This document shows positions 20,352 to 51,268 of a DNA stretch of 64,000 nt, piece by piece. The DNA comes from Euryodendron excelsum. Taxonomy: Eukaryota > Streptophyta > Magnoliopsida > Ericales > Pentaphylacaceae. The stretch is from contig CM065392.1 in the NCBI GenBank assembly GCA_033060915.1, positions 15,837,501 to 15,901,500 of the forward strand, given 5' to 3'. Below the pieces are notes generated by a model. That model was not told where the DNA came from. It saw nothing but the letters and a program-made list of their open reading frames with translations, and did not search any database. Position numbers and translations under genes: made by a program. Numbering within the stretch: position 1 is the stretch's first letter; every line of letters starts with the position of its first letter.

Positions 20352-20359
20352 GAAACTTC

Positions 20360-23606: not shown

Positions 23607-23611
23607 CCGTG
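23607..23611. repeat. Target-site duplication of element C, left copy
   Basis: CCGTG lies directly before the TGTCGCACCCC start of C. It is repeated at 49,691-49,695, directly after the GGTGCTTACA end. Removing C plus one copy restores a continuous gag-coding region. Confidence 0.95.
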
Positions 23612-24984: not shown

Positions 24985-25187
24985 AGCATACTAATCTAGG
25001 TCAGGTTGATTTTAGGTTAAGGGTGACCTAAGGTTAACTAACTAGGGTTAGGTTAATCTAGGGTTAAGGTGGTCTAAAGTTAGCTAACTAAGATTGGGTT
25101 AACCTAAGGTTAAGGTGACCTAGGGTTAACTAACTAAGGTTAGGTCAACCCAGGGTTAAGGTAACTTAGGGTTAACTAATTTGGATT
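24985..25187. repeat. GGTTAACC/GGGTTAG-type tandem repeats in the C LTR (left copy, part 1)
   Basis: Degenerate 20-25-bp units are built from GGTTAACCTA, GGGTTAAGGTGACC and AACTAACTA. The array continues beyond D at 27,133-27,275 with GTTAACCTAGGGTTAGATAACT units. The matching array in the right LTR is 46,275-46,577. Units resemble telomere repeats locally but are not TTTAGGG arrays. Confidence 0.85.
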
Positions 25188-25192
25188 AAGTT

Positions 25193-27132: not shown

Positions 27133-27275
27133 AAGTTAACCTAGGCTTAGATAACTCGGGTTAAGTTAACATAGGGTTGGATAACTAAGGTCAAGTTAAC
27201 CTAGAGTTTGATAACTAGAGTCAAGTTAACCTAGGGTTAGATAACTAGGGTCAACTTAACCTAGGGTTAGATTGG

Positions 27276-28710
27276 AAGATGGTTTTAAAAGGTGGTTTTG
27301 TGCTCTTTGAAAAGAGTTTTGACAAATAAATCATGTCAAGAAAAAGACTTTGGTAGATAACCTTTTTGAAGATCATTTCCATAAAAATTTGACTTTAGCC
27401 AAGAATATAGTTTATATGGTTGGTATTTGAAAACCATTCCGGAGAGGGTTTTCCTAGGACCATTATAACCTTTATCTTGACAAGAGTAAGGATTTCAAAA
27501 ATCAACATAATGATGCCAACTTTTAAAAAATTATTTTTAATGCAAAAATGGAGTGAATGAACTTTTGAAAACCATTTTTGAGAGAAAGACTTTGAGAACC
27601 ATTTTCGAAGGGAATTATTCTAATAAGTTAGGGTTCCTATGGCTGATATAAAAGGACACCACTCAAGGGAGGGTTCCATGGGCCATTCCAACCACTGAGC
27701 TTGAGAGAATAACAACCTTAGAGATCAAAGAGTTCGAAAATTATTTTCGTGCAAGAAAAAAGAGAAGGGAACCATTCTAGCAATTTAGGGCTCATATGGC
27801 CAATATAAAAGGGAAACCACTCAAGAGAGGGTTCCATGGAGCCATTCCAACCACTAAATTTGATAAAATAGAACCCTTAAGAACTAGAGAGTTTGAAAAT
27901 CATTTTTATGTAAGTTGGAACGCAAAGATGCCAAGGTGGGAGTTAGGGCTCAATGAGAGATTTTCTAAGGCATGATTTCCTATAGTATCATCCTAAACAT
28001 TAAGGGACCAACTCTTAGAACCATTTTGAAGGGGATATTGATCTTGAAAATGGCATAGAGATAAGAATAGTGTAAGTTTTGAAAATCATGATTACAAACA
28101 TGAAAATAAAGCCAAGCACATAAAACATGAATAAGATAGCAATATGCAAGAGGGTCATGAATACATACAAGGCTTTAGGCTAGACCATATAATCAAGGAG
28201 CTCCAAGGTCATACCATCTTAAGGTAGCCTAGTGAGAGATCCCCCTACACGGTGGCTCTCACCAACTTTCCCCTAGGCATGAACTAAGAGCCTTCTTGTT
28301 TTAAGCATGCAACAAAAGGGGGGTAGAAAATGGGGATTAAAATAGATAATAGCCTAAGTAGGCTAAGAGGGAGAAGAGAGGAGGGGGGGAAGACAAGAAT
28401 GTAAAAGAAATACCACATTTTGCCTTCAATACACTCGCAATCTTCTATGGATGTCTTAACTTGAGCTTGGAGGGCTTTAAGTGTGCTTGAGGGGCTGGAT
28501 GGAGGTATTCTATGGTGTAGAAGGCTATGTAGGTGAAGTGCATGGGTTAGGAGAAGGTGAAATCTAGTCTAAGTGTTTGAGAGGTATGATGTATATAGGA
28601 TTTTGAGGTTCTACAGCAATTTTGCAGAGTTTCGCTTTAATTTTTGATTCTGGAATATGCAAAAGGGGAGACCTGTATCTATAGCCAACCTGGGAGAGGC
28701 CTGGCATATG
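27276..28710 (-). other. C LTR sequence between D and E, non-coding
   Basis: This stretch is collinear with 46,580-48,010 of the right LTR and lies in the inferred R-U5 part of the - strand transcript. It contains repeated words such as GGGTTCCATGG, GCCATTCCAACCACT and GAAAACCATTTT. No open frame of interest is seen. Confidence 0.8.
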
Positions 28711-28715
28711 TGCTA

Positions 28716-31700
28716 TATCGTGCCTAGATTTTTCACACTCGAGGAATACACACATAAGCGGAAAAAATACTGTACTCTCTCGTTAGAACTCATCCTCCTA
28801 AAAAAATGAGTGCGACTAGGTTTGAATTAAAAACTTAATTTGAATCAAGGGCTTTTAAAAAAAGTTTGGAGTTGCCACCTAACTTGATTAAGGTGAGTTA
28901 GGTCACCAAAAAACTAAGCATAATCTGACGATCACACTTGGGGTTTTTGAAAACGATTTTGAAAATACTACCTCAAGAAAGGGTTTTTAAGAAAACAGGT
29001 TGTTTGGCAACCTTTGAAAAATAATTAAGCCCTTTTTTGAAAATAAACTCCATTTTAGTCTTTGAAAATAGTGATCCTAGGTTCGGAGGTTGGTTACGTA
29101 TAGGAAAGACGCACTAAGCCATCACCCTACCCCGCCCTTGTGGTACCTACACGTCTATTCACCCTAAATTCACCTATGAGAGTCTTCAACTAACAAATGT
29201 CCAATCCTATCCACTTTAGAAAATAATTTTGGAAAGAATGATACATGATATGCAATTGCAAGAGAGAGAGTTGGAAAATTGATTTGGAAAGAGATTTGAA
29301 AAGAAAATTGATTTGATTTGAAAGAGATTTGAAAAGACAGACTTGAAATTGGAAAGTTTTGGAGATTAGAAATAGAGATTTGAAAACAGATTTTTGGAAT
29401 TGAAAACTCGAAAATAGATTATGGAATTGGAGATTTGAAAAGAGTTATAGAAATAGAAGCTTGAAAAAGGTTGTGGAATTGGAAATTTGAAAAAGGTTGT
29501 GATCGCACCCATAAAGGTTGCCTACGTATCCTTTTGGAGGAATCAAGTCAGTCGTAGTTTGGACAAGAGTCCAATAGAAAATAGAAGGTTTGATTGGAAA
29601 AAGAAATTAAATTAGAATTTGGATTTGATTTGAATTTAGAATTGAAGATTGGAATTTGAAATGGAAGATATTGAACTTTGATTTAGAAAGATAGAGATTT
29701 AGGAAACCTAGACATAGGAAGATAGAATTGGAACTTGAGAGAAAGATTTGACTCAAACGTTGGACTTGGAAGATTAGGGAAAGATTGGATTTAGAAAGAT
29801 TCGAATTTAAAAAAGTTTCAAAATATGGAAGTTTCGTTTTAGGAAAGTTTCATTTTAGGAAAGTTTCGAATTAGGAAAGTTTCGATTTGGGAACGTTTCA
29901 ATTTAGAAAATTTTTGAAATAGGAAAAGTTTTGTTTTAAGAAAGTATTGGAATTGGAAAATTTTGAATTTGGAACGTTTTGAAATAGGGAAGTTTTGAAA
30001 GTAAGAAAGTTTTGAGTTTAGAAAGTTTTAGATTTAGAAAGATTTAAAGTTTAGGAAAGTTTAAAATTTAGGAAGTTTCAAAGTTTGAGTTTTAGAAATT
30101 CTTGAAATTCGAAAAGGTTTGAGTTTAAGAAAGATTTGAAGATTTATATTTGGAAAGGTATGGAGTTAGGAAAGGGTTGAATTCTTATTTCCTAAAATGA
30201 AAGATTGGATTTTGTTTCTAAAGAGGTGTTTTGATTTTGTTTCCAAAAATGGAGGATAGGATCTAGTTTCCTAAATGGGGGATTGGATTTGGTTTCCTAA
30301 AGGGAAGATAGGATTTGACATAGATTTGGAAAGAGAAGTTTTATAAACCTTAGATTTGGAAGACTATAGTTTTGATATAGAAAATAAGTTTTGGAAACTT
30401 ATGATTTTGATGTAAAAGGGAGATTTTGAAAACCTAGATTTTAAGGTAAGATTGAAAATCATGTTTTTGGAAAGGAAAATTAGGGTTTCCTAATCGTTGG
30501 CTCTAAGGTTTAACTTGGACACCAAGAAAAGGGATTTTTGGAAAGTGAGTTTTTAGAAAGAGAGATTTTTGGAAGGAAATCCTAGAAATGGGTTTTTAGA
30601 ATGTGAACTTGAGAGGAGTTTTAGAAAGAAAACTTTGGAAGAAGTTTTTAGGAAATAGATTTAGGGGGCATTTTTAGAAAGTGAATTTTGAGGAGAGTGT
30701 TTTTGGAAAGGAGTTTAAAAAGAAGTTTTGAAAAATAGATTTTTGGAGGAAGTTTTTGAAAACAATTTTGAAAAGGAGATTGGAGAGAGTTTTTAGAAAG
30801 CATGTTGGAAAAGAGGTTTTTAGAGAGAGATTTGAAAAGAGAGATTTTAGAAAGTTTATAAAAATATCTCACTTTCCTAAAGCGATTCTAACCATAAGAA
30901 GGCTAGAACCACTTTAGGATAGTGGTTTTGAAAACAACAATTATTTGAAAATATGGACCATATTGGTCACTTTAAATATAACACTTTCCTAAAGCAACCA
31001 TAGCCATGGAAAGGCTAGAATCACTCTAGGATTGTGATTTTGAAAACAAGTTTTGAAAAAATAATTTTTGATGCGAGTTTTGAAAACAATTTTGATGCAA
31101 ACTTTTGAAAACGAGTTTGAAAACGAATTTTGAAAGAATGCAAGATCATGATATGCATAATGCAAGTTGGGGTCGTGAACATACAAGGTTAAAGGGTTCA
31201 CCACATAATCAACGGGGCCGAACCCACGTGGTCTTCGGTTAGACTAAAAGAAAGTCCCCGACACGGTGACCCTCCAATAGCCTAATCCTACACATGGACC
31301 GAGAAATCCCTTGTTTCAAGCATGCAAGAAAGGGGGGAAAGAATATAGGGGATTAAAATAGAAGAAAACCCAAGTGAGTTCAGAGAGAGAAAAGAAGGGG
31401 AAGATGCGTAAACTTAAATAGAAAGCCTACCTTGTGTCTTGTTTATTTTGCTTTGCTTTGCACACTTTGTTTCTCTTGCTTCGCTTCGGTCTTCGATTCA
31501 ACCTTCGTTTTGATCTTCGAGAGCTTCAGTTTGCAGCACTTTAAGTCTTCAATGGAGGCTTTGGAGGCTAGTATATTAGTATATGAGAGTGTATGAGTGT
31601 ATAGGAGGCTAGGGTTTGTGTATGGAGGCTAGGGTTTAAAGAATTTAAAGGAGACTAGGGTTTAGGGAGGCTACCAGCTATGTATATCAAAGAATAAGGT

Positions 31701-33243
31701 TTTTTAAACTGAGTTTGCGGACCTCTTTTACTCTGGAGGAGGCTCAGTATTTATAGAGAGAAGGATGACTTGGCACCTGTTACAATGGTGCCAGGCCAAT
31801 ATTTGGCTTTAGTGGCACCAGCTACTTAGGAAAGTTTTAAGGTCGGCAAGCAACATATCTTCAGAAGATTTGGGCACATGTACTAGTGATTACCATGCAA
31901 TTTTTAGCCTGGCTTCACTAGGAGTGGCTTCGGAAGGTCTGGGAAGGATTTAAGGGACCGGGAATGGCTCGGAAGGACAGAAAGGGACAAGAACCCTTAG
32001 AATAGGGTCCCGGAGGTAATGGACTTGAAAAAGAATGTCAAGGTTTGTTAGAGGGGTCGATCAGGTCATTAGGGCAAAACGATCAACCAGGCCGAAAAGC
32101 TGCTAGAACGGACTCGGAATGTCCCAGAAGAAGACTCAAGATTTGGAAACATTATTTAGAATGTTCCCAAAGGTTACTGGTTTGATACCCAGAGCTGATG
32201 TGGTTGGAAAAAGTGACCGACACACTAGGGGCAAAACGGTCATTTTATACTGGGTTTGCCGAAAATGAGTTGGAATGATCCGGAAAGATAATGGAAGGTT
32301 GAGAATACTATAAGAAGCATTCTCGAGAGGTTACCAGTTCGGATGCCTAGGGGCAAAATGGTCATCTTAATCAGAAAGTCTCAGAATTGGCCCGAAATAA
32401 ACTAAAAGGCACCTAATCATGCCGGATTGCCTTTAAGACAATCTTGGAAGGGTGGACTTACCGTTCTGAGGACTTAGGTACTTTTTCTAGAAACGTGCTG
32501 AAAATGGCCCTAGGGGTAGTTTGGTCATTTTTCACCAAAGTAGGCTAGCAGGCACCGATGTTGACTTGGGTTTTGAGTGTTTCCGCCACTCTGATGGCGG
32601 TCTCGTGATACAGGAGTTTGTTGGCAATTTCTTATATCGACATGTTTACGAATACTTTCACTACTCTGACGGTTGCTATGTTTACGAGTATTTTCACTAC
32701 TTTGATGATTTGCGATCATTCCCGAGACTATCTGATATCGGAAAGTTACTAAATGGACTTAGCGCCTGAGGAATCAACTTTTTCAAAAGGTGTGTCGAAA
32801 CGGATATTTCTGCATTGGCGGGCTAGTAGGCGCCAAAGGTGGATCGTTCTACCATCTAGGGGACTCGGGGTCTCGTCCCGGCCGACGGGTTTGAAGTTAC
32901 TTATCGTTCTGAAGAGTTTACTCAGAAACGTGCCAGATTGGAGGGTCTTACCACCTTAAGGAATCAACTTTTTCGAAAGGTGCACCAGATTTAATTGGAA
33001 TTGAAATTGGAAATGGGACTTACCGTCTTCATAAAGACGTGCCTGTTGGAATTGAACCGAACATTACCCCCAACGGCATTTTAGTAATTTTGCATTTATT
33101 TGGGCCCGACGGGCTTGCGAAGCGGTTTGATTGATGAGATTAGACTTGGAAAGCTGATTTGACTCAGAATATGTCCACATTGACTTGAATACAAGTCTGG
33201 ACAAACTGTAGACTGCCTAACGGTCAATAATGGGGTGCTTACA
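28716..33243 (-). mobile_element. Element E: solo LTR related to C, inserted in the 3' LTR of C
   Basis: This 4,528-bp block runs from TATCGTGCCTAGATTTTT (TG changed to TA) to GGGGTGCTTACA. It is flanked by perfect TGCTA repeats (28,711-28,715 and 33,244-33,248) and absent from the right LTR. Its first 600 bp resemble the C LTR start (GTTAGAACTCATCCTCC, GAGTGCGACTAGG, GTGAGTTAGGTCACC), so it is a solo LTR of a sister family in the same orientation. A TATAAATA box lies at 31,748-31,755 on the - strand. Confidence 0.9.
29230..30870. repeat. Low-complexity GGAAAGTTT/GATTTGGAAAG tract in E
   Basis: About 1.6 kb is built almost only from permutations of GAAAG, TTTGGAA and GATTTAGAAAG on the + strand, with very little C. 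It is an expanded, diverged simple-sequence region; local units of 10-25 bp recur irregularly. The short - strand frames over it encode Phe/Leu/Ser-rich nonsense. Confidence 0.8.
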
Positions 33244-34504
33244 TGCTACATGCACCTGGCCAGAATTTGCCCTAATGCATGTAGCACATGCGCCAGTACT
33301 ATTCCATTACCAGAATGCCACGTCGCACCCATTGTACTAGCTAAATTCTGACGGTTGATCAAACTTTTGTCAATTTGATCAAAATCTGAACGCATGTAGC
33401 ATACGCTCTGTCACCGAGAGTTTTATTTAAACTTTGCCTCGATAATTGAGCCAACCAGGAAGGTTTCAGAGGAATTGGTTGCACCGCGATGTTTTCCTAG
33501 GGTTTCTCGTGAACTTTCGTGTTTTTGAAAAGTTTGAACGGTGTTCGGAAGTGTGAGATATCGTCTCTGAAAATGTGCATGAAATCGTATTTCTGTGGAG
33601 CGTCTGTGATACACTCTGCAGGGGTTCAAAAGTAGCTGTTTTTGTGTCGCATGATCGAGGCCTTCGGGAAGCGATCTCTCCGATCGGACCATACCGATGG
33701 AAAGTACTCTGAAAATACTTTTGGGAATTCCTTAATTTATGCATTTCTCAAGTTGTTTGATGGTGTGTTATAATCAAGGAATTGAGAAAGAAGTCAATCT
33801 TGGCGAAGCGTCTGTGAGACGCTCTAAGGTTTGCTGTAAGTGGTTCAAGCTATGCGAGGAAGAGCTTCGGGAAGCGATCTCTCCGATCGAGCTGTATCGA
33901 TGGAAAGATCTATGAACGAACTTTCGGGAATTCCCTAATTTACGCATTTCTCAAGTCATTTGACGGTGCGTTATAACCAAGAAATCGAGAGAAAATGCAA
34001 TTTTGGCGGAGCGTTTGCGAGACGCTCTATGAAACTTCTATTGAGTCGGGGGTGTTTAGTGTCGTAAGGTTCTCTTTAAGTTAAACAGGGGTGTACGACT
34101 AGACCCGCTGTTCAAAATCCTAGGACCAATGCTGTTTTAGGACGTGTTCGGGTTGTCAGGGGCAAAATGGTCATTTTGACCAGGTTCGTTTGAATAGGAA
34201 TGGATCGAAGTGTCATGTTAAGTGTGTTGGGTCATTCAGGGATGATCCCGGGAGAGTCTTTCACTGTTCGGTAGGATTTGTGCGGGGTTGTGGCGTTCAG
34301 GGGTAAAACGGTCATTTTGACCAGAGTTAGCTGGAATGGGACCGAATGGCATGCGAAGTACGCTTAAGTGCTTAGTAACATTTTGGAAAGGTGGACTTAC
34401 TGTTTTCAGGGATTTTAAACTTTCTCAAAACTTGTCTGGAGGCCCAAGGGCCAAGTTTGGTCATTTTTCACTAAGTCGGGCTAACAGGCATCGGTATTGA
34501 CCTA

Positions 34505-34885
34505 GGTGTTGGTTCCCTAGACCGCCCGGCCTTAAAAAACTACGTGTGTGGTGTTGGTCCCTGAGACCGCCCGGTCTCAAAAAGCTACCTGTAGGGTGGT
34601 GTTAGTTCCTGAGAACGCTTGGTCTCAAAAAGCTACTTGTGAGGGTGGTGTTGGTCTCGAAGAACGCCTAGTCTTGGAGAGTTACCTGTGTGGTGGTGTT
34701 GGTCTCCGAGAACGCCTGGTCTTGGAGAAGTACCAAAGGACGGACATTCTAAATTGGCGAGCTAGCAGGCGCTAAAAGTGAGCCGTTTGGAATTTGATAA
34801 GGTGTTGGTCCTCGAGATCGCCCGATCTCAGGAAGTTACCTAGATGGTGTTGGTTTCCGAGATCACCCGATCCCAGAAAGCTGCC
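34505..34885. repeat. Tandem array of hairpin-forming units in the C LTR (left copy)
   Basis: Six or so units of 55-65 bp share GGTGTTGGTCYCYGAGA, an inverted repeat, and an AAAAGCTACCTGT spacer. Two units are perfect hairpins: GAGACC-GCCC-GGTCTC (34,563-34,578) and GAGATC-GCCC-GATCTC (34,814-34,829). The matching array in the right LTR spans about 49,205-49,530. Confidence 0.75.
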
Positions 34886-35054
34886 TGGAATGATGTTTAT
34901 GGCTTCAGTTGGGCTTTTGTGTGCCTGTGAAGCAACTAGCTGACTGGATTGGAGTTTGAAAAACCTGTCTTGGGTTTGTATGTGTTGTGATTGCTTGAAA
35001 ACTGAGCTCGATCGGGCCCAAGATCGCCGAGCAGGCAAAAATGAGGTGCTTAGA

Positions 35055-35080
35055 GCTACCCCTCTTTTTCTTTCTTTGTT
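35055..35080 (-). other. Polypurine tract of element C
   Basis: Immediately inside the 3' LTR the - strand reads AAAGAAAGAAAAAGAGGGG followed by TAGC, a long polypurine run at the position where plus-strand synthesis is primed. It confirms the - strand orientation of C. Confidence 0.8.
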
Positions 35081-35399: not shown

Positions 35400-35530
35400 G
35401 CTCATATGCTACATGCACATAGCCTCTGGTTATACTGGCACATGTGGCACATATGCTAGTTGGAATTTCCTTCTGGCACATCTACTACACACGCCAGGCC
35501 GTGGGTTTTAAATAGAGCAGTCTCTCATTT
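35400..35530 (+). promoter_or_regulatory. Probable promoter of the antisense PMD gene
   Basis: On the + strand, TTTTAAATAGAG (35,516-35,527) is a good TATA box. It is preceded by TGCTACATGCAC (35,407-35,418), GGCACATGTGGCACAT and CGCCAGGCC. The first 12-mer is identical to C LTR positions 33,244-33,255. A GCACATGTG plus CCAGGCC arrangement also precedes the LTR TATA box at 47,984-47,991 on the other strand. A start about 30 bp downstream would give a 5' UTR of about 150 nt before the donor at 35,706. Confidence 0.6.
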
Positions 35531-35705
35531 TCTCATTGCGCGTTTTACATTTTGTGGGTGATTCGGGATTTTCTCTAAAGGTTTTTCAAAGGATTTCAAC
35601 CAGGGATTGCTACAGGAGTGTTGGGTGACGTCGGGTGTTTTCCAGAAACTGTCATTGTCGTCGGATTTTTGCCAGAAAGTTTATCTTTCGCCGGAGAACC
35701 CAAAG

Positions 35706-37380
35706 GTTAGTTTTTCAGAGATTTTGTTGATTTTGATGCGTATATTTCCGTTTCTTGCAAATGATTAGCATAAATCTATGTTTTAGGATGTTTAGAACAT
35801 AATGGGTGGATTGTTTTTGCGATTTGGTGAAGATTTGAGTGTGTTTGGGGTAATTTTGCATGTTTATGAAAATGGGTTTCCTACAGGGTTAGAAAAATCG
35901 TCTCTATAGGCCTGGACATTATGTGTTTGTGTGTGATTTTTGTATAGGGAACCTTAGAAAAATGTGTAGAACAACCATATGAAGTTTGGTAAAGTTTTGA
36001 AAATTTTTGAATTTTTAAATTTTTAGAAATGATGAAAAATAGGAAAAATTGAGGAAAATTAGAAAATGGATGTTGTTGAAGGTTGAAAAATTACGGGACA
36101 CTTTTGAAAAATTATGGTGACACTCTCGAATGTTTTAGGAATTTTCGGAAATAAAAATGAACCTGAAAATTTTGAAAAACCAAAAGAATTGGCTTTAAAA
36201 ATTAGGTTTGGAAAAGGGACTTGTACCGTGGAAGATGGGGTTGTTTTGACTGATTTGGTTAAAGGTTTGAGGTGTCTCGGACCGTGCCTATGGCTCGTTG
36301 AATCTTGGGATAGTGACTTTTTAAGGCGAACCCTTACCGAAATTTTCAGAAAGGTATTAAGCCTATTAAAAATTTAACACCTAGCTCCAAATTTTTCGAA
36401 AAAGCAATTTTTTTTTTAGAATTGGGCTTTTGAACCAGAAAGCCCTCAGAAACTGAAATTTCATAAGACTTTTAGGAGTAGGGTTTTTGAAGGAGAAAAA
36501 TCGAGAAAACCAATTTTAGAAAAATCATAGAGAACTTTGGAACGGGGCTTTTGAAGGAGAACATCCCAGAAACTGTTTTGAAATTTTGACATGAAACTTT
36601 TTGAGGGGAAAATTCAAAAACCTGTTAGAAAACATTTGGAAACAGAGCTTTTGAAGGAGAAAGCCCCGACAACCGATTTGAAATTTTGAAATGAAACTTT
36701 TTAAGGAAAAAGCTTTAGAAAACTGTTGGAAAACATTTAGAAACAGGGCTTTTAAGGAGAAATCCCAGGAACCCAGTTAGAAAATTAAAAATGAGACTTT
36801 TGAGGAAAAAGCTTGGAAACAGTTTGGAAACATTTAGAAACAGGGTTTTTGAGGAGAAAGCCCGAGAAACCGGTTTGAGATTTAGAAACCAAACTTTTTG
36901 AGGGAAAAGCTTGAAAAACCATGGAAAACTTAGAACCAGGGCTTTTAAGGGAAAAGCTCGAGAAACTGCTTTGAAATTAGAAGTGCGGCTTTTGAGGAAA
37001 AAGCTCGGAAACCGTTTGAAAATTAGAAACAAACTTTTTGAGGAAAAAGCTTGAAAAAAGCGTGGGAAAACATTTAGAACGAGGCTTTTGAGGGGAAAGC
37101 CTGAGAAACTGATTTGAAATTTTGAAATGAAAAATGGATGGGCCCTTAGCCCCGCCCCCCCCCCCCCCTCCCCCTTTTTCTTTCTTCTCCCTTTTTCTTT
37201 TCCTCTCTTGTTTCTTTTTTTTTTTCTTCTTTTCTTTTTCTTTTTTCTTTTTTTTCTTCTCTTTTTTTTTTCTGTTTTTTTTTTGTTTCTACTTTATTCT
37301 TTCTTTTATGTTAACGTATTCATCTTTTTACTTTTCATACATGCTCAATAACTGATCAATGTTTTAAATTACTTTTCCAG
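35706..37380 (+). other. 5'-UTR intron of the antisense PMD gene
   Basis: The donor AAAG|GTTAG and the acceptor TTTTCCAG|G, just before the ATG at 37,382, bound a 1,675-bp intron. Its 3' part is an exceptionally long pyrimidine tract (37,150-37,330), with a C-run followed by T/C sequence. The open frames over that tract are Phe/Pro-rich artefacts of simple sequence. The intron also holds the hairpin repeats at 36,420-37,120. Confidence 0.6.
36420..37120. repeat. Hairpin-forming tandem repeats in the PMD-gene intron of C
   Basis: About a dozen units of 55-65 bp alternate between GGGCTTTTGAGGAGAAAGCCC-like and ACTTTTTGAGGAAAAAGCTT-like halves, linked by GAAACNGNTTTGAAATTTAGAA. Many halves are inverted repeats (GGGCTTT/AAAGCCC near 36,424-36,444; AGGCTTT/AAAGCCT near 37,082-37,102). 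Confidence 0.75.
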
Positions 37381-37381
37381 G

Positions 37382-39223
37382 ATGTCGAAAGCTGGTGGTG
37401 ACAGTTTTGTCAGGAGGCACCATGGTAAGGCGTCGCGGATCAATCCTAGGGAGGGCAGCGCCAGCAAGAGTGGTTTAGCTCAGGGCGGCAGTAGGAGCAA
37501 TTCAGCTTAGGGCGGCAACAGGGGTGGTTCTACTCGGGGCGATAGCAGTGGGTTTCAGCGGTCTTCGAGTAAAACGGCCTCTAGTGGCAATTCTGCGATG
37601 GGGCAGCCTTTGGTTGCTCCAGATGAGAGAGCTGAGGATGATATTGATTTGGCCATAGACCCGTGGATTGGGTATGGCATGGCGTTAGTTCGAGATAGAC
37701 AGAGGGATACTTTTTTTACGAATGACCAGTTAGTGATCCCTGACGTCCCATCACTACAAGACTTGGCTTACCACCCGAGCCTATACTCGCATTATGGTTG
37801 GATGCCGTCGTAGACTCACAGTTCCTTTAGAGGGGCCAAGTATCTCAACCTTGAGAGCCATATAGGTGTCGGCCCCGTCCTATCAGGATTCCTACACCGG
37901 ATAGGCTTTGGTGCCTTTATGATGCTTCAGACGGATAGGCTTGATCACCGGATAGCGATCGGGCTATTGGAGCGATGGTTCGAGGAGACTGGGACAGTGC
38001 ACTTGGTAGGCTTTGAGCTGGGCCTACTCCCGTTAACTGGGCCATGATTACTGGACTGTCCTTTGGAGGTGTTCCAATTTCTCTACGGGCCGTGTCTCTG
38101 GATGAGGCTCGTCTTCTCTTGGGTTTGCTGGGGATTGCAGGCTCGAGCTTCTTGGCTTCACTTTCATACCCAGCAGAGACAGCATTTGCTCTTGAGCCCT
38201 CTCCAGCCAATCAGGTCATCATGAGCTGCCGATTGGTACTATACATCGTCTTTAGTTGCTTTTGCAATAATAATAAGTCGACGGTTCCTCTATCCCTAGT
38301 AAGCCTGGTAGCAAACTTGGATGCGCTAAACTATGTGGATTGGGGTGTCTTCACCTTTGCTAGATTCTTACGAGGGATGAGAGTGAGGACATCTGGGGCC
38401 TGGGGGAGCTTGACGGGCTTTTGACCATTTCTGATATGGTAGAGCTATGAGTACCGCCTGTTCACCGCCCAGAGGTACTAGTTGATGATGCATTCCCGCA
38501 AGCCACGAGGTGGGCCAGTTAACAGGTAGTCTAGCAGTCCCTGCTTAAAGATTTTGTCGCCCTCCGGGCTAACCTGGAACTGTTGAGACCTTGAGACATG
38601 TCTTGGGTGCCTTACCGCCGATCGCTTCAGTATGCTGGTATGAGGGATCTCATCCTTCTGTCCAGGTCGCGGGTCACTTTTCGGGGTCCTTTTTCATGGG
38701 AGACGTATTTGGGAAAGCATCACTGGCGGCAGCTGCATATCGACTTTCGTGCTGCAATGGATCCTCCCCACAGTCGGGGTTCCTGGCGACCACTTCCTTC
38801 TTCCGCCCGGTGTGGACTACGAGACTCACTTCAAAGCGAGGTCTATTGGCACTTTTACTCAGCTGGATCTAGTGGTTGGAGGGCAGGTAGACAGTAATAA
38901 GGTAGTGGAGCTATGGCATCAAGCTTAGGGGTTTGTTTCCTCGGAGGAGTACTTAGGGGCTTGCTAGGCACGAGATTAGTATCGTGCTGAGGTGGAAGCC
39001 TTAATTGCTCGAATATCTCTGATGGAGGCCTACTGGGTATGCTATTTACAATTCATTTTTCATGTTCTTCATGCATCATCTGTGTTCTAATGTTAGGTTT
39101 TTTTTTTCTTTTGTCTTTTTCCTTGGTTAGGGCCCTTATGATGCCGGAGCTTCTTCCAGCCAGCCCTTGTCATACATGCCACACATGGGTGACTTTGACT
39201 GGGATGATGACCCCGCTCCTTGA
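37382..39223 (+). pseudogene. Antisense gene of element C: plant mobile domain (PMD) protein, spliced, broken
   Basis: The reading region starts at an ATG 1 bp after a splice acceptor. The N-terminus is Gly/Ser/Arg-rich and low-complexity. The plant mobile domain follows: LDHRIAIGLLERWFEETGTV, ITGLSFGGVPISL, then further PMD hallmarks in NNNKSTVPLSLVSLVANLD and YVDWGVFTFARFLRGM (to about 38,390), and SRSRVTFRGPFSWETYLG (about 38,660-38,710). An intron at 39,037-39,130 (GT-AG, strong pyrimidine tract) joins in frame to a short acidic C-terminus ending DFDWDDDPAP, stop at 39,221-39,223. Breaks are TAG at 37,508-37,510 and 37,811-37,813, a one-base loss near 38,020, and stops around 38,422, 38,520-38,530 and 38,590. 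PMD proteins act in silencing and plant development, and the domain is known in transposons; the function in this element is unknown. Confidence 0.85.
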
Positions 39224-41144
39224 GGCATTTCTTTTCACCTACTGTCACAGTTATAGTTTTGTTAGACTGATCGTATTATTTACGTTTTGGGGCCATGTGT
39301 TGACCCTCATGGATGATTGATTGTATGACGGTTATATGTATATTATCATTATTACCTCTTTGTTTCTTTGTATGAGATGATGATTGGTTTTTTATTTTAG
39401 TCTTGTCTTGAATGTACGCATGCGAAAATATAAAACACAGGACTATAGAAATCATGACACACATAAGAAATTGTGAGTATGTGCAAGCTTTAAATAGATG
39501 TGAGAAGAGGTGGGTGTATTGTTATACGTGTTCAGGCTGAGCATACGGGTATATACAACTTTTATGAAAACAGGCCTAGAGGTAGGCTTCAATTTCCTGT
39601 GTGTAACTGAATATTCCCCTGGAGCTGATCATTTCGGACTTTTGCTCCTTCCTTAAAAATTCTTTTCTTTGTTATGCCCTTTTCTTGTCGTGATGATATA
39701 GTAGTTGCCCCACTCTTAGGGTTTCCATTTTTTGACCCGACTATACTCTCTCTTCGGAAAAGGAAGAACCTGTCACTCGCTCAACTTCCCCTTGGGGCCT
39801 TACATTTGAACCAGTGGGCTCTCTAGGTGACAACCAAAGTAGCCTTTAGCAAAGGAGCAAGCAGTTTTCATCCCCAATCCTAGAAGGCTTTATTTTGGAC
39901 CGTAATGTAGGCTAAGTTGAGGGTGAGGAATGAAGGGTATGCAGGCTCAAGTAATTTCTCTACTCCTTAACGGGGGCGATAATGAACCAGAACCACCTCG
40001 AATCAGTTTTTGCTCATTTTGCTCAAATGTCACCATTTTCTTTTGAACTTGTTTAGACTAGGCAATCTTTTTTTATTTGAGAGGACTTTTCATTGGGTTG
40101 TAGTGTGGCTAGGTTATGGGGTTTTCAAAGGAAAGGGTATTGAAGGCCCAAAGGGTTATACTCTTCCTAGGGTTTACTGGTGATCACTTTTTTAGGTCTT
40201 TCCCTTTTTAGGTCCCCAAACTTCGTATAAGGCTCCTTGTTTCTTTTGATTTTGCCCCAGCACTGCTATTTTGCATAGCTTATAGAGTTCTTGGGGCACC
40301 TCCTTATTCATTCATCATTCATTTTTTTTTTTTTTTTTGATATTACATTGTTTCCTCTCTCTTTTGACGTACGAGAAAGCTTTCTTTCTCCTCACATTCC
40401 CTTTTCCTCATTTTTCTTTCCAAATTTACTTTCACCTATTGTGGGCAGTGATCACCCGGACGGGTTTGCCGAAGGAATGCGATTTGGCTCAAAAGGTGTT
40501 TCTCAAAGGGGATTCTTTTAACTTTATGGTAGAAGAGTAAATGGCCCCTCTTACTTTCAGACAAGATTGCTTTGTCTATGAAGTTCAGTCTTAGAACCTT
40601 GACATCATCCTTTGAGATTAGCAAATGTTTAGCTTAATTGTTCTGTTACTCGTACTTGCCCCAATGTTGGGAGTGGTTCCTGGTTAGGGTGTTTGAATAA
40701 AAACTACTTACGACTCGAGTGGGCTGTCCAAGGGAATCGCTGTGCTATTTAGGGAATTTAAAATGATGGCTTCTCTTCTTTTCGAAGGCCTAACTACCGA
40801 CTACTTTGCCATGGCATCCTCCGAGTGCCACCCTTTTTTTATGATCTGCTCCCTCTCTTTCTTTTCCTCAGTGTCTCCTTTCTTTGGATCAGGAACGATC
40901 CCCACAGATGAGAGTGCTCGTACTATCCTCCCTTTCAAGTCAAGGCATTGCAATGAGAGGGGAAATTTCTAAGAAAGAGCAAATACCGAAGATGACAAAT
41001 GCAAATTTCAAATTCTTTTCTTTCATTTCAAAGATTTTGCATACATGACAAGCTCTTGATTAGCAAAAGATAAAAAGTAAAGTTGACAAAAATAGGATTA
41101 ACAAGGAAGTAAAGATAGAGTTTGATGAAAAGGACATCCTTTCG
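39224..41144. other. Interior of element C between the PMD gene and gag; no pol found
   Basis: In autonomous Tat elements this region would hold protease, RT, RNase H and integrase. I searched both strands for YxDD, D[ST]G, HHCC and the other motifs seen in element B and found none. The sequence is T/C-rich on the + strand and may be the 3' UTR of the PMD gene, with pyrimidine runs at 40,320-40,440. Short open stretches (for example 40,291-40,540) are Phe/Ser-rich and unconvincing. Confidence 0.65.
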
Positions 41145-42146
41145 CTAGCCGCTACTTGAAATGGGCTTTGGGATCACGCCTGCCTCATCTACGCTCCATT
41201 CGCCAACTTCTTTGCCCAGTTGTGCTGAACGAATTGTCTCATTGGCTGCGGCGTGGCAAAGATGGGTAGTTATAGTGTAGTTGGGGACTCCTCCTTTTCC
41301 TTCCCTTTCTCCAGTTGGGTCATTAAGGTTATGCATCCCATCTTGGGTTCTATGAAGGCCTTCCTTTGGTTGAATGGTTTTCTTTTGCTCAGCTTCTTCG
41401 AGTTTCGTAGCCAAGCTTTCTTCTAGGACTTGCAGTGGCTTTTCCTCTTTTTCAGCTTCCACTTTGTCTATTTCAGCAAATAGGCTATCCAAATTACCCT
41501 TACTGAATTCGAACGGGTGGTTTAGCATTCTCAGCTCATAGATGCCCTAGCCCATATTCTCATAGTCGAAGAGCTCCTCTTTCAGGCGGGCCTCAGCTTC
41601 GGCATATTTGGGGTGTAGGAATTCTTCTCCCCAGCCATCTGCAGGCACAGTATTAGCAGGAACGTCTTCTATGGGCTCTTTCACAGGCCAGTCAAAAGGA
41701 TCTTACTCTCCACTTGCGTTGTACAGATAGATAAGGCATGGCGGTAGCTCCTCTTCCTAGTCACTTTCTTCCTCAGTGTCTGACTCTCCCTCAAAATAGT
41801 CTGCAGTTATGGTGCCATCCGGATCTGCCTCTCCTTCTGTGATGATGTTAACAGCATGGTCGGGTAAGGGGTTTGCCGTGACATTACGAGCGAGGACCGG
41901 TTTTGCCTCTTGGGTATTGATGACCTTGTTATTAATGAGGTCTTCGATTTTATGCTTAAAAAAGAAGCAGGACTCTGTGTCATGCCCCTGTCCCCCAGAA
42001 TGATATTCACAAGTAAGGGTAGGGTTGAAAGTCGAAAGCAGCGGGCTTGGCAATGGTCATGGGGGTATAGGGTTTATGTGCTTGGCTTTGAGGAGTTTAT
42101 GGTAGGCCTCTATTTGAGTGCATGCTAGGCGGGTGAATTCTCGGTT
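41145..42146 (-). pseudogene. gag-linked C-terminal region of element C
   Basis: Downstream of gag the - strand has a knuckle-like Cys/His block (42,053-41,757: CEYHSGGQGHDTESCFFF, then KIEDLINN and NPLPDH). An acidic run (EGESDTEEESD) follows, then a Glu/Lys-rich, partly coiled-coil segment (41,528-41,145; LFAEIDKVEAEKEEKPLQV). Stops such as the TAG at 41,758 and a TAA near 41,703 interrupt it. The first block is standard for Tat-type gag. I do not recognise the last segment as protease, and it ends at 41,145 without leading into RT. Confidence 0.7.
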
Positions 42147-43300
42147 TTACCTGTTGTTCTTGTTAAGGTTGAGGTAGGGTCGAACGGCGACGGGTCCAAG
42201 AGCAGGTGTTTGGACATTGGCAACAGGAATGTTGACGATAAGAGTAGGCGATGGTGGTCGAGCTTGATATTGAGGATAGTGTGGCTGTTGTTGTGCTGGC
42301 AAGATGGCAGATACCTCTCCTTCTTTCTTGCCAGTACCTCGAGTGGTTGCTACTTTTTTTGCTGCATTTGCAAATCCCTCACCTGTCTTAGCATTGGGGT
42401 CTGTGATTCTGCTAGTTTTCAATCCATTCTCAATCATTTCTCCTTGCATTATCAACTCAGAGAAACTCTTTCCGATGCTCACGCACAGGCGTTCATAGTA
42501 CAGAGCTTGGAAGGTGTTCACAAACAGCTGCACATACTCTTTTTCCAGTAGTGGAGGGTTGACTTGAGCAGCTGCCTCCCACCATCTTAGAGCGTAACTC
42601 TTAAAGCTCTCCTTCTCCCCTCGGGTCATTATCATCAAAGCACACCTATCCATGTTCAGGTCACTGTTGTGTCGAACTGAAAGGCCGTGACCAATTCTTT
42701 CCAGGTTGTTATCTTCCTCAAATCTAAATGGGTGAACCACTGCAAGACGGGCCCAGTCAAGCTATGTTGAAACAGTTGTATCAGAAGTTTGAGGTCATTC
42801 CCATGTCCACTTAATGTGCCTGCGTATAGCCTCAGGTGAGCCACGGGATCTCCACTTCCATCATATTTTTGAAAATTGGGCATTTTGAATTTGGGTGGTC
42901 TTGGGTGATCAAGAAAGAAGCATAGTTCATCATAAGATGTCCCACCGAAGGTGTCATGACCTTGTAGGCTGCACATAGACTCTTCTAAGCCTTATATCTT
43001 GAGATCGAGAGGGTCCGAGCTTTCCTTCTTTGATGTAGCAGTTAGTAAGATGGTTTTAGGGTTGTCTTCTTCTCCTTCCTCAATGTGTACTGCTTTGGGG
43101 AGTTCCTTGTTCTTTCTCATATTATCTGTTCACAGGACGACCCTTGGCAGGATGGCTTCAGCTTCTTTGGGGTGTGACGTCGAGGTTGACGAATTCACGG
43201 CAGGTCTTTTGAAGGCCATTAGTTGTACGAGCTTGAACATCTTGTCTATTTTTGCCTTCATCTCGTTCACTTCCTCTCGTGTCATCGAGTTGTTTTGTTA
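42147..43300 (-). pseudogene. gag of element C
   Basis: The N-terminal part (about 43,000-43,290) starts near MTREEVNEMKAKIDKMF, with an acidic linker. The gag core (42,656-42,976) has PPKFKMPNFQKYDGSGDPVA, LIQLFQHSLTGPVLQWFTHL and WKELVTAF. After a one-base frameshift near 42,665 it continues at 42,147-42,660 with MDRCALMIMTRGEKESFKSY, ALRWWEAAAQVNPPLLEKE and a Pro/Gln-rich tail. This is a Tat/Ogre-type gag and would form the particle. A stop near 42,986 and the frameshift make it inactive, but the core is well preserved. Confidence 0.9.
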
Positions 43301-44920
43301 ATCAAGGGTGTTGCCTTCACTTATCCTTTGCGTTGCTCACTGTCGAGTAAGGACTGGTGTTCGGAGTACAAGGGGCACTCGCGTTCCTCTTTTTTCTTTT
43401 CTAGGAGCAATGGTGACCTAAAATGCAAGCAGTCTCACCAGAAGCTATTGCTAGTCTTTTGATGGGATAAGAGGAGAAAATAAAAAATAAAGAAAAACAA
43501 AATAAAAGGATTATATGTTAGGTTCTGAATTAAAAAGATTTTATGCAATGCATGACCTAAGGATGCCCCTACCTTTTGAGGGGAACTGAGCGTGATGCTT
43601 TGGCTCACGTCAGGAGATAGGGAGTTGCCCCTGTATGCAATATTGTACCTGTACGAGCCTGTTCATACATTCATTCATACATTCATTCATTTGATGGCAA
43701 TAACAGCTTTATTGAGATAAATTCTCTTTTTACATGGAATTTTCAAAAATACATCAAAATAGGGAGGGGAAACATTTTCCTTGGGACTTCTGCCTATTCT
43801 ATATTTACATCATGGGATCCTAAACTATTCTTGAGTATTTGGATTCACCTTCTTGGATGGAAGTTGGTGGGAGACGTTTGATTTGGCGTCTTCTTGGCAG
43901 CCCTATCTCCATGAGCGAAGAGGGATTAGAGCCCCTCTTTGTGGGATGATTTTTTATGCATGTCATGAATCCTTAGGGTCTCTTGGTACCCTTAGGAGTT
44001 TTTGGGGTTGGCTTGATTTGAGCGAGAAGGTCTTTGGGCCTTTCTCTGGGGGTTGATTAGATGCATGAGGATGCAATGACTCGAGCCACTTTGAGAACTC
44101 TTGTCTAGAATTGAATTCCAATGCATGAGTCATTATGATATGAAAGGATACATGACATAGCGACAAAGATTAAGCATGATATCATAAACAGAAAGTAAAG
44201 GAAAGTAAAGCGGTCGCCCTTTCCTCCTTGGTTTTGAAATTGACGCCTGTGTCCTAAATTTCGGCAGAGGTTCGACTATGCATAGGGTGCTACATGAGCA
44301 TGAAGTTGGGGGTTTACTAATGCTTCCTAAAAAGCTTGGTTCCCAAACCTTCAAACCTCCAGTGTCCACCCCCCCAAAGGGTGAACTCCATCTTTGGTTG
44401 GTGGTTCAAGTGGGAGAACTATCAAGAGACCGTAGGCTGAGAAACTGACACAGCATCCGCCCACAGTCAATATACTGTTCTCCCTTCTATCTAGAAGAGT
44501 AGTAACCAGGTAATATATGCAAAATGCAAATGCAAGTGAGCGCACCAAGTGTGTATAGAATTTTTAAAAATGGAGGAAATGACCCAATAACACACATCAC
44601 ATCTTGTTCATTCATCACATACATGGCAATAAATAAGACATGAAATAAAGTGTGAACCAAGGTCCACCTACAAAAGAAAAATGCAAAGAGTTAGTAACTT
44701 TTCAAAAAACTCAATGCAAGGGAAAATGAATGGTTAATGTAAGAGCATGAACGTAAGTAATGAATGCAAGTGATAACACTTATTTAAAAATTGCTTTGAA
44801 AAATAATATTTGCTTTGGAAACTTTGAAAAAATTTGAAGAGTGTATAAAACTGGACAAAGTAACCGGAGATTCTGGGTGAGTGAAGGGTGAAGAGACATG
44901 TCAATGGCCTAACCCTCTAA
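43301..44920 (-). other. Leader between PBS and gag of element C
   Basis: About 1.6 kb of non-coding sequence, usual in length for large Tat-type elements. No recognisable ORF. It includes a CATTCATTCATA microsatellite near 43,664-43,692 and runs of A-rich sequence near 43,470-43,510 and 44,640-44,860. Confidence 0.6.
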
Positions 44921-44942
44921 GTATCCCCAGCGAAGTCGCCAA
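44921..44942 (-). other. Primer-binding site of element C
   Basis: Just inside the 5' LTR the - strand reads TGGCGACTTCGCTGGGGATA. It closely resembles the TGGCGACTCCACTGGGGA type seen at this position in Tat/Ogre elements. A tRNA 3' end would pair here to prime minus-strand synthesis; the exact tRNA was not determined. Confidence 0.75.
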
Positions 44943-44943
44943 C

Positions 44944-47900
44944 TGTCGTGCCCTGGTTTTTGGACCGAGTCCTTTCGGCTCAAAAAAACACAGAACTCTG
45001 TTATTAGAACTCATCCTCCTAAAAGGACGAGTTCCACTAGGTTTGATCTTGACATGGGTTTGGTTAAGGACTTTTTAGAAAAATAGGAGTTGCCACTGAA
45101 CTTGATTAAGGTGAGTTAGGTCACCTAAAACTAAGTATAATTCGAAGATTAAACTCAGGATTTTTTAAAAAGGTTTTAAAAACTTTCTCGAGAGAGGGTT
45201 TTTGAGAAAATAGGTCGTTTGGCAACCTTTAGAAAGATTTAAATCCTTTTTTAAAACAACTCCATTTTAGTCTTTCAAAAACAGAAATCTATGGTCTGAG
45301 GGTTGGTTACAGATAGGGAAGATATCCTAAGATCATCATCCTATCCCGCTCTTTCGGTACCTACATGTCTAATCACCCTTTTGCTCACTCACTAAAATAA
45401 CCGTTTACCATTATCCACTTTAGAATTTTTAAAACGGGGTTTAGTCATCACTTCTTAGATGAATGATGCATGATGTAAGTCTGAAGGAAAAATGTTTGAA
45501 AATATAGAAGCTTTGATGGATTTTGAAACAAAGATCTTGAATTGATAGAGGGTTTTGAAAAAGGACTTCGGTTGAAATAGGAGTTATGGCGCACCATTTT
45601 AGGTTGCCTACGTATCTCATTTGACGAGAATCAGGTCATTCAGAGTTCGGACAAGAGCTCAATGGAAAATAGGTGCATTAGGGCCTTTGAAATGTTTGAA
45701 GACACTTTGCAGTCTTTAGAAAAAGAGAACTTGAGAGTTTTAGAAAAAGGCCTTTGAAATAAGACTTGAGATATTTGAAATGTTTTGAAATTGAATTGTG
45801 GAGTGTCTTGAAATAGAACTTTGGAACTCTTGAAAGGGGATTTTGAAGTGTCTTAAAATGCTTTTGAAACAACTCAAGAGAGTTTTGGAAATGCTTTGGA
45901 GTCTTGTTTTGAAAACTTCAAAATGAGGCAGAGTTTGGAGTGTTTTAGTAGATTGACCTTTGAAAAGTTTTTGAAAACACCTAGGACTTTGGAGCTTTAA
46001 TATGGACAACCTTAGAGGTTGTTCTTGATGTATCACCTTCCTTTGGAATCCCTAACCATGAAAGGGGTAGGGGCACCTTAGGGTTGTAAGTTCTTGAAAA
46101 CATTTTTGAAAATATTTTAAAGATGGAATGTAGGAGTATCTGAAAGGGTTATGGAGTCGGCTTTTTGAAATCTCAACGAGAGTAAGAAGTTTTTGAGAAA
46201 GAGGTTATGAGAATAGTCTTGAATTGAAAGTTCACTTGAAAAGAGGGCCTTGAGTTGAAACCTTGAAGCATACTAATCTAGGTCGGATTGATTTTAGGTT
46301 AATGGTGACCTAAGGTTAACTAACTGGGGTTAGGTTAACCTAAGGTTAAGGTGGTCTAAGGTTAGCTAACTAAGGTTGGGTTAACCTATGGTTAAGGTGA
46401 CCTAGGGTTAACTAACTAAGGTTGGGTCAAGCCAGGGTTAAGGTAACCTAAGGTTAACTAATTTGGGTTAAGTTAACCTAGGGTTGGATAACTAGGGTCA
46501 AGTTAACCTAGGGTTGGATAACTAAGGTCAAGTTAACCTAGGGTTGGATAACTAAGGTCAAGTTAACCTAAGGTTGGATTAGAAGATGGTTTTGAAAGGT
46601 GGTTTTATGCACTTTGAAAAGAGTTTTGACAAATAAATCATGTCATGAAAAGGACTTTGGTAGACAACCCTTTTAAAGATCATTTTCATGAAAATTTGAC
46701 TTTAGCCAAAAATATGGTTTATATGGTTGGTGTTTGAAAACCATTCCGGAGAGAGTTTTTCTAGGACCATTATAACCTTTACCTTGACAAGAGTAAGGAT
46801 TTCAAAAATCAACATAATGATGACAACTTTTAAAAAATCATTTTTAATGTAAAGATGGAGTGAATGAACTTTTAAAAACCATTTTTGAGAGAAAGACTTT
46901 GAGAATCATTTTCGAAGGGAATTATTCTAACAAGTTAGAGTTCTTATGGCCAATATAAAGGGATTCCACTCAAGGGAGGGTTCCATGGGCCATTCCAACC
47001 ACTGAGCTTGATAGAATAACAACCTTAGGGATTAAAGAGTTAGAAAATCATTTTCATGCAAGAAAAAAGAGAAGAGAATCAATCTAACAATTTAGGGCTC
47101 ATATAACCAATATAAAAGGGAGACCACTCAAGAGAAGGTTCTATGGGGCCATTCCAACCACTAAATTTGAGATAATAGAACCCTTGGGAACTAGAGAGTT
47201 TGAAAATTATTTTTATGTAAGTTGGAAAGCAAAGATGCCATGGTGGGAGTTAGGGGTTAATGAGGAGATTTTCTAAGGCATGATTTCCTAGAGTATCATC
47301 TTAAACATTAAGGGACCAACTCTTAGAACCATTTCGAAGGGAATATTGATCTTGAAAATGGCATGGAGACAAGAATGGTGTAAGTTTTGAAAACCATGAT
47401 TATAAACATAAAAATAAAGCCAAGCACACAAAACATGAACAAGATAGCAATATGTAAGAGGTCATAAATACATACAAAGCTTTAGGCTACACCACATAAT
47501 TAATGAGCTCCAAGGCCATACCATCTTAAGGTAGGCTAGTGAGAGATCTCCCTACACGGTAGTTCTCACCAACTTTCTCTTAGGCATGAACTAAGAGCGC
47601 TCTTGCTTCAGGCATGCAAGAAAATGGGGGTAGAAGATGGGAATTAAAATAGAGAATAGCCTAAGTAGGCTAAGAGGGAGAAGAGAGGAGTGGGGGAAGA
47701 CAAGAATGTAAAAGAAATACCACCTTTTGTTTTCAATACACTTGCAATCTTCTATAGATGTCTTGACTTGAGCTTGGAGGGCTTTAAGTGTCCTTGAGAG
47801 GCTGGATGGAGATATTCTATGGTGTAGAAGGCTATGTAGGTGAAGTGTATGGGTTAGGGAAAGATGGAATCTAGTCTAAGTGTTTGAGAGGTATGATGTA

Positions 47901-50648: not shown

Positions 50649-51263
50649 TGATAGTGTAGTAATCTTGTGGAGTCTTACCCCCAGGTCTTCAATAAGCCAT
50701 CTCCCGTCTCTTGGTGATTCCCTATTCTAAGACTCATCGGTGGGGTGCCTGCCAAAGGTCCTCCAGCTTTCTAGTTAGATTCATGAGAATAATATTGCTT
50801 AGAGAATGTAGTTTGCTAGGGTTTTCTTTTTTGCGTACCTGGGGAAGGGACTGTGGTTTTCCTTTCTATGCATGTATGGGAGTGGTTGACGACCTTTCCA
50901 CATAGCGGCATTTCGTTGGAGGGTCAGAACTGTGACAGGGCACTTGAGAAGGTCATCTCTACACTCCACGATGGCATGTGTCATAACTGTGTCAGGATAG
51001 GGCGGTTGCTCCTTATACACTTCACGCCCATGCTCCGAGTGCTCACCAGAGTGTCTGGTGTCAAATGTGGACCCCACCAATGTGATAGTGAGGTCGACTA
51101 GAGTGGGAGGTCCCCGAACAGTTGGTCTGTTCGGGACTCGAGGGGATGGTGCATCAAGGGTTTGGTCGAGGCCCGACCAAACTTCACGGTGTGGAATAAT
51201 CTGATCGGAGCCCAACCAGCCGTCCATGGGGTCTCTAATCTGGTCGGAAAAACACAACTACCA
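50649..51263 (-). repeat. 5' LTR of element B
   Basis: This 615-bp LTR runs TGATAGTGTAGT...CACAACTACCA. It aligns with 14,669-15,256 and is followed by the ATGAA duplicate. Open stretches over it are chance frames within the LTR. Confidence 0.92.
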
Positions 51264-51268
51264 ATGAA
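51264..51268. repeat. Target-site duplication of element B, right copy
   Basis: ATGAA follows the LTR end directly and matches the left copy at 14,664-14,668 exactly. Confidence 0.9.

What the first reader, a model, noticed from the sequence alone, without database searches (positions are those of the whole stretch)
35400..39223. Spliced antisense plant-mobile-domain gene inside a pol-less Tat-type element
C carries gag on one strand and, on the other, a full eukaryotic-style gene: TATA box, 5'-UTR intron of 1.7 kb, PMD coding exon, a 94-bp intron joining in frame, and an acidic last exon. PMD proteins act in silencing in plants, and PMD-bearing transposons and antisense ORFs in Tat elements are known. 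The combination of gag plus antisense PMD with no RT or integrase would be a non-autonomous element that keeps a possible host-silencing-related gene. That function is inference.
Basis: partly seen in the sequence, partly recalled or inferred. Interest (0 to 1): 0.8.

Follow-up and report, generated by a model that had tools for sequence, protein, structure and literature searches.

The report
Enzyme-less plant retrotransposon with antisense gene
This is one old, broken copy of a plant jumping-gene family that seems to have lost its copying enzymes long ago yet kept two genes, its shell protein and, on the opposite strand, a spliced gene related to plant gene-silencing proteins; each part is known, the lasting combination is the interesting point.

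Summary
The anatomy is real. Element C is one LTR retrotransposon on the minus strand (TSD CCGTG at 23607 and 49691; 4.7-kb LTRs; Ogre-like primer site) with gag and no detected pol. On the plus strand lies a plant-mobile-domain (PMD) gene with a 1,675-bp 5'-UTR intron, a 94-bp intron and an acidic last exon.

It is not a one-off deletion. Of 20 sister PMD loci fetched from the same 1.06-Gb genome, 18 show PMD, spacer, gag and leader in the same order without pol. Of 35 gag-PMD pairs from two separate capped searches, 30 lie 2.3-2.5 kb apart. PMD (median dN/dS 0.19) and gag show codon-position marks of purifying selection; so does the last exon, and the intron before it does not.

PMD in Ogre elements, antisense extra ORFs and gag-only elements are in print; my paper searches found no account of this combination. 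A silencing role is untested, no cDNA was available, and no helper element was found.

The parts
23607..23611 (.). target-site duplication CCGTG, left
23612..35054 (-). 3' LTR of element C, interrupted by a nested solo LTR; 90% identical to the 5' LTR over 4,725 aligned columns
28716..33243 (.). nested solo LTR of a related element, TSD TGCTA at 28711 and 33244
35055..35078 (-). polypurine tract (AAAGAAAGAAAAAGAGGGG on the minus strand) next to the 3' LTR
   Evidence: read by eye
35506..35515 (+). TATA-like string TTTTAAATAG, putative antisense promoter (weak)
35706..37380 (+). predicted intron 1, 1,675 bp, in the 5' UTR of the PMD gene; donor G|GTTAG kept in 8 of 8 rows that reach it (window and 7 loci)
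36515..37130 (+). minisatellite of about 98-bp units inside intron 1; longer arrays in many sister copies
37382..39036 (+). PMD coding exon, broken in this copy (TAG at 37508 and 37811, frame changes after about 38017)
39037..39130 (+). predicted intron 2, 94 bp; donor GT in 28 of 30 and acceptor AG in 24 of 30 aligned copies; no codon periodicity
39131..39223 (+). last exon, 30 codons and stop, acidic tail; open in this copy
39224..41144 (.). spacer where pol would be expected; no coding domain; end-to-end in 29 of 39 other scored copies
41145..42976 (-). gag, frame-broken in this copy
42991..44923 (-). gag leader, mostly about 80% alike to sister copies
44924..44941 (-). primer binding site TGGCGACTTCGCTGGGGA (minus strand), tRNA-Arg type as in Ogre
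   Evidence: tRNA partner recalled, not tested
44944..49690 (-). 5' LTR of element C, 4,747 bp, TG...CA
49691..49695 (.). target-site duplication CCGTG, right

Best explanation
Element C is a decayed copy of a high-copy, non-autonomous LTR retrotransposon family of the Ogre/Tat lineage (Ty3/gypsy). Shown: the family carries gag on one strand and an antisense, intron-bearing PMD gene between gag and the 3' LTR, without pol, in many copies; gag and PMD evolved under purifying selection while the shared spacer and the small intron did not show codon periodicity. Inferred: genomic RNA from the 5' LTR makes Gag; an antisense promoter inside the 3' end of the internal region makes a spliced PMD mRNA; reverse transcriptase and integrase come in trans from a related autonomous element; Gag and PMD are retained because they favour the copy that encodes them, Gag by packaging its own RNA and PMD, probably a nuclear protein, by acting on expression or silencing of the element. 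This particular copy is dead.
For: Structure: TSD, LTRs, PBS, PPT. Architecture shared in 18 of 20 fetched PMD loci, with 0 tblastn hits of pol ORFs in all 20; 30 of the 35 gag-PMD pairs 2,308-2,520 bp apart, out of 64 gag hits, 29 of which had no partner in the capped PMD list; spacer end-to-end in 29 of 39 other scored copies. Selection: PMD median dN/dS 0.19 over 136 pairs of 17 protein-picked loci; 9 DNA-picked loci against L011: differences at codon positions 1/2/3 are 0.193/0.131/0.421 in the PMD exon, 0.287/0.219/0.280 in intron 2, 0.094/0.117/0.462 in the last exon; gag 0.094/0.065/0.201 in 10 loci against L024 with downstream control 0.145/0.176/0.158, and the window 0.147/0.101/0.403 against control 0.301/0.276/0.274. 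The spacer is homologous in the window's group and in the larger group (K2P median 0.37 to 15 loci), so pol loss most simply predates their split. PMD in 57% of Ogre elements and Ogre tRNA-Arg priming are in print (PMC6317226, PMC9289625, passages).
Against: No RT exists in C, so the Ogre placement rests on PBS sequence, LTR size and PMD only. No helper element was found, so trans-mobilisation is inferred. All 9 DNA-picked close relatives and the window itself have stops in the PMD match, and only 4 of 105 scored PMD hits have none: the family looks old. The 20 loci were picked by protein score, which favours conserved copies; the unbiased set has only 9 loci that share one reference and one branch. 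With minimal changes per column the periodicity is modest: last exon P 0.017, last 45 codons of the PMD exon P 0.057, intron P 0.68. Among only the window's close group it is weaker (0.158/0.135/0.258). Pol was sought in the sister loci only with ORFs of one outer element of uncertain kinship. No RNA data.
Confidence: 0.72

Rival explanations
1. Repeated deletion: an autonomous Ogre element with antisense PMD is the active unit, and pol-less copies arise again and again by internal deletion; selection acts on the autonomous ones.
For: Autonomous Ogre elements with PMD are common (PMC6317226, passages); my hit lists are capped, so rarer pol-bearing copies may be missed. The distances of 2 of the 5 wide gag-PMD pairs (7,457 and 12,402 bp) were not examined, and the insert of a third (12,283 bp, L010) was not identified.
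Against: Independent deletions should leave different junctions, but the spacer joins gag at the same place in the 18 loci and is end-to-end in 29 of 39 other copies. Of the wide pairs that were examined, one insert (L040) is a solo-LTR-like stretch and one (L023) is a 1.7-kb insert inside the spacer; neither shows pol.
Confidence: 0.15
2. The antisense PMD gene is a passenger or a source of antisense RNA that damps the element (siRNA), and the protein has no role; the codon signal is a leftover from before pol loss.
For: Antisense RNA regulation is proposed for such ORFs in the review PMC7264820 (parts 1 and 2 of 3 read). The window copy and its 9 DNA-picked relatives are broken.
Against: The codon signal is seen between copies that already share the pol-less spacer, and the last exon keeps its frame across an intron in most of 30 copies.
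Confidence: 0.1
3. Gene capture: a host PMD gene was recently taken up by a gag-only element.
For: The genome holds many other PMD loci, some with full-length open PMD matches that look genic; MULEs captured PMD-C genes (PMC5418596, passages).
Against: The gene is present in both sequence groups of the family with K2P 0.37 in the spacer; in print, clades PMD-A1 and A2 are exclusively Gypsy-borne. I built no PMD tree, so the clade is untested.
Confidence: 0.03

Closest known systems
Ogre lineage (Tat clade, Ty3/gypsy) with PMD extra ORF
   Same: tRNA-Arg-type PBS sequence, LTRs near 5 kb, PMD in an extra ORF; PMD reported in 57% of Ogre elements (PMC6317226, passages)
   Different: no RT, RNase H or integrase found; the spliced antisense gene structure is not mentioned in the passages I saw
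TR-GAG elements (terminal-repeat retrotransposons with only gag)
   Same: two LTRs, gag as the only replication gene; transposition of one shown in Arabidopsis ddm1 (PMC8704663, passages)
   Different: C also keeps an antisense PMD gene under selection, and is far larger
Antisense aORF-3R elements: maize Grande (gene23), Retand (TRP28)
   Same: antisense ORF between the gag-pol side and the 3' LTR, own promoter in Grande, tandem repeats nearby, non-autonomous members (PMC7264820 parts 1-2; PMC11963269 passages)
   Different: other protein domains (TRP28, none for gene23); pol usually present; the passages seen in the Retand paper name lost GAG, AP, RH or INT, not gag kept with all of pol lost
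Host PMD-C genes MAIN / MAIL1
   Same: plant mobile domain; host proteins act in TE silencing (PMC5418596, PMC7156037, passages)
   Different: gene of the plant, not of an element; kinship within the PMD family not tested here

Membership tests
LTR retrotransposon | paired LTRs with TG..CA ends, PBS, PPT and target-site duplication | tested here: met
   the right end of the left LTR reads GA instead of CA in this old copy
Ogre lineage (Tat clade) | RT-RNase H-integrase phylogeny with extra (archaeal) RNase H | tested here: not met
   no such domain present to place it; filed as 'derived from / works with' the lineage, not as a full member
Ogre lineage (Tat clade) | PBS complementary to tRNA-Arg | tested here: inconclusive
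   TGGCGACTTCGCTGGGGA fits the recalled Ogre/tRNA-Arg site and recurs in sister copies; the tRNA search did not complete
Ogre lineage (Tat clade) | PMD extra ORF (57% of elements in print) | tested here: met
TR-GAG | LTRs flank gag and no other retrotransposon protein | tested here: met
   for sister copies pol was sought by tblastn only
TR-GAG | a single ORF | tested here: not met
   antisense PMD gene present and selected in the family
PMD (PF10536) protein | match over the Pfam cut-off | tested here: met
   met by sister copies L011 and L018 (74.3 and 70.8 bits) and P0001 (79.6 bits) against 34.9; the window's broken pieces score 12.4 and 12.6
PMD-A clade (Gypsy-borne) | phylogenetic position among PMD-A1/A2 | not tested
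   no named reference PMD sequences were at hand
Spliced protein-coding gene | introns removed from mRNA | not testable with these tools
   only comparative support: splice sites and codon periodicity

The most novel reading that the evidence does not exclude
A non-autonomous retrotransposon lineage has lived for millions of years on borrowed enzymes while keeping exactly two genes of its own, Gag and a spliced antisense PMD protein that interferes with the host's own PMD silencing pathway (MAIN/MAIL1 with PP7L) as a decoy. Selection on both in copies without pol would show that these two proteins act mainly on the copy that encodes them.
Probability: 0.2. Interest if true: 0.75.

Novelty: new variant of a known kind. 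Interest (0 to 1): 0.45.

Why it matters
Extra antisense genes in plant retrotransposons have no known function, and they are usually found beside pol, so one cannot tell whether they serve the element or ride along. A pol-less family that still shows selection on gag and on the antisense PMD gene separates these roles: whatever PMD does, it pays without the element's own enzymes. It makes two questions testable: do these proteins act in cis, and does an element-borne PMD touch the host PMD silencing pathway.

Tried and rejected
Rejected: 'a single deletion derivative' (18 of 20 fetched loci share the layout). Rejected: 'intact gene in this copy'. Looked for pol in a wide gag-PMD pair, C11, 7,644 bp: the spacer there is intact and the extra 5.3 kb resembles the window's solo LTR. 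A first look at another PMD family (L039, 9 kb downstream of one locus) showed no gag or pol. Relatives in viral contigs, genome contigs and plasmids: none. Protein searches gave one PMD relative, two gag relatives, and P0001 itself plus three others, none with a name. The AlphaFold model of P0001 is useless (mean pLDDT 32.9), so no fold search was made. A first codon count held five reversed loci and was replaced; one search failed in part and was redone. Of the 20 loci, three (L021, L022, L027) were left out of dN/dS for unequal length; gag counts used 10 of the 17 gag-bearing loci other than the reference; L017 and L023 were left out of the spacer distances. No PMD tree and no helper search by RT were made.
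Full report
What is there. The finding sits inside one LTR retrotransposon on the minus strand. The right LTR (44944-49690) and the left LTR (23612-35054) are 90% identical over 4,725 aligned columns (K2P 0.110, 381 transitions to 94 transversions) and are flanked by the same five bases, CCGTG, at 23607-23611 and 49691-49695. With substitution rates that I recall (1.3e-8 and 7e-9 per site and year) this is about 4 to 8 million years. The left LTR is split by a nested solo LTR at 28716-33243 with its own duplication TGCTA. Next to the 5' LTR, on the minus strand, is TGGCGACTTCGCTGGGGA, which fits the tRNA-Arg primer site that I recall for Ogre and that two papers name for Ogre elements (PMC9289625 passages; PMC6317226 passages); sister copies keep it. 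I could not test the tRNA itself.

Genes. The minus strand carries gag at 41145-42976, broken into overlapping frames; the best piece matches Retrotrans_gag at 1.5e-4, and an open sister gag of 691 residues matches at 2.4e-10. Pfam scans of all minus frames of the internal region and of the plus frames to 41400 give no protease, reverse transcriptase, RNase H or integrase. But the long exon is not open: TAG at 37508 and 37811, then frame changes from about 38017 on. Alone its pieces score 12.4 and 12.6 bits for PMD. The assignment comes from relatives: P0001, found by a read-through query, is a PMD protein by Pfam (E 3.2e-22) and aligns to the window at E 4e-94, with 82% identity over its first 33 residues and 50% over residues 35-390, partly out of frame.

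Is it one deletion? The window's genome is held (G000, 1.06 Gb). P0001 matched 105 scored places, a capped list drawn from 8,937 first-look candidates, which are not copy counts. I fetched 10 kb around 20 of them. In 18 of 20, PMD, the 1.9-kb spacer, gag and the leader follow in the same order and orientation as in the window; L010 and L015 do not show it within the fetched stretch. None of 26 pol-region ORFs of the neighbouring outer element hits any of the 20 loci, though that element's kinship to this family is uncertain. A separate search with gag gave 64 scored places; 35 have a PMD hit on the opposite strand within 40 kb, 30 of them at 2,308-2,520 bp, and 29 have none in the capped list. 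Of the five wider pairs, one is L023 with a 1.7-kb insert in the spacer, one holds a solo-LTR-like insert, one is L010, not identified, and two were not examined. A search with the spacer alone gave 39 other scored places, 29 of them end-to-end matches.

Selection. Among 17 loci of equal length the PMD stretch has a median dN/dS of 0.19 (5th to 95th percentile 0.12 to 0.34, 136 pairs). These were chosen by protein score, so I repeated the test with 9 loci chosen by DNA similarity to the window against L011: differences per site at codon positions 1, 2, 3 were 0.193, 0.131, 0.421 in the long exon, 0.287, 0.219, 0.280 in intron 2, and 0.094, 0.117, 0.462 in the last exon. The last exon is thus read as codons in the frame that splicing predicts, and the intron is not. 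Weaker results: within the window's own close group the pattern is 0.158, 0.135, 0.258 (exon), 0.181, 0.114, 0.183 (intron) and 0.119, 0.118, 0.286 (last exon); counting minimal changes per column over 30 copies gives P 0.017 for the last exon, 0.057 for the 45 codons before the intron and 0.68 for the intron. Gag shows the same: 0.094, 0.065, 0.201 in 10 loci against L024 with a downstream control of 0.145, 0.176, 0.158; the window against L024 is 0.147, 0.101, 0.403 with a control of 0.301, 0.276, 0.274.

Splice sites. Donor GT of intron 2 is kept in 28 of 30 copies and acceptor AG in 24 of 30; 27 of 30 keep a stop codon at the aligned place. The intron 1 donor G|GTTAG is kept in 8 of 8 rows that reach it. 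By eye, the intron 1 acceptor AG is kept in 15 of the 18 rows that align there, and the start codon in 15 of 18. This is comparative support, not proof of splicing.

State of the family. Only 4 of 105 scored PMD hits have no stop in the matched stretch, and 9 of 9 DNA-picked relatives have one to ten. The window's spacer differs from that of 15 loci of the larger group by K2P 0.34 to 0.40, from L026 by 0.22, and those 15 from each other by 0.17 at the median. Since the same spacer without pol is found in both groups, the loss of pol most simply precedes their split. For the window's own close group the full order with gag was seen only in the window and L026; the other nine were fetched with 1.5-kb flanks.

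Reading. I take C as a dead copy of a non-autonomous, Ogre-derived family that kept gag and an antisense spliced PMD gene. Enzymes must have come from elsewhere; I did not find the source. Retention of both genes in pol-less copies suggests that they act for the copy that encodes them. What PMD does is open. Host PMD proteins MAIN and MAIL1 act in silencing (PMC5418596, PMC7156037, passages), and in print the clades PMD-A1 and A2 are borne only by Gypsy elements.

What is known. PMD in 57% of Ogre elements (PMC6317226), antisense extra ORFs with own promoter in Grande and TRP28 in Retand (PMC7264820 parts 1-2; PMC11963269 passages), and gag-only TR-GAG elements that can move (PMC8704663 passages). 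The paper searches list no account of gag plus antisense spliced PMD without pol, but the key paper on extra ORFs (Steinbauerova 2011) is known to me only as a reference, so this is a weak absence.

Noticed in passing
window 14669-51266: Element C sits inside an older minus-strand LTR element: a 159-residue gag-like ORF without a Pfam match at 49908-50384, integrase at 19599-20363 (rve E 1.2e-12), and a repeat pair 14669-15260 / 50649-51266 at 84-88% identity that look like its LTRs.
   Followed up: partly
window 28716-33243; L040:2189-7467: Solo LTR with duplication TGCTA inside C's left LTR, and a similar 5.3-kb stretch inside another family copy; a related family inserts into this one.
   Followed up: partly
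window 36515-37130; L009-L028: Minisatellite of about 98-bp units in intron 1 of the PMD gene, with longer arrays in many sister copies.
   Followed up: no
G000 C10:3349513-3378289: Four full or nearly full PMD matches without stops (open frames of 650 to 958 residues) within 29 kb, looking like a cluster of PMD genes rather than transposons.
   Followed up: no
window 4581-5854: Another minus-strand gag (Retrotrans_gag E 2.6e-8) of a different element.
   Followed up: no
window 23612-35054 / 44944-49690: Transitions exceed transversions four to one between the LTRs, as expected from methylated, silenced DNA.
   Followed up: no
window 18375-19054: Tandem repeat of about 59-bp units downstream of the outer element's integrase.
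   Followed up: no
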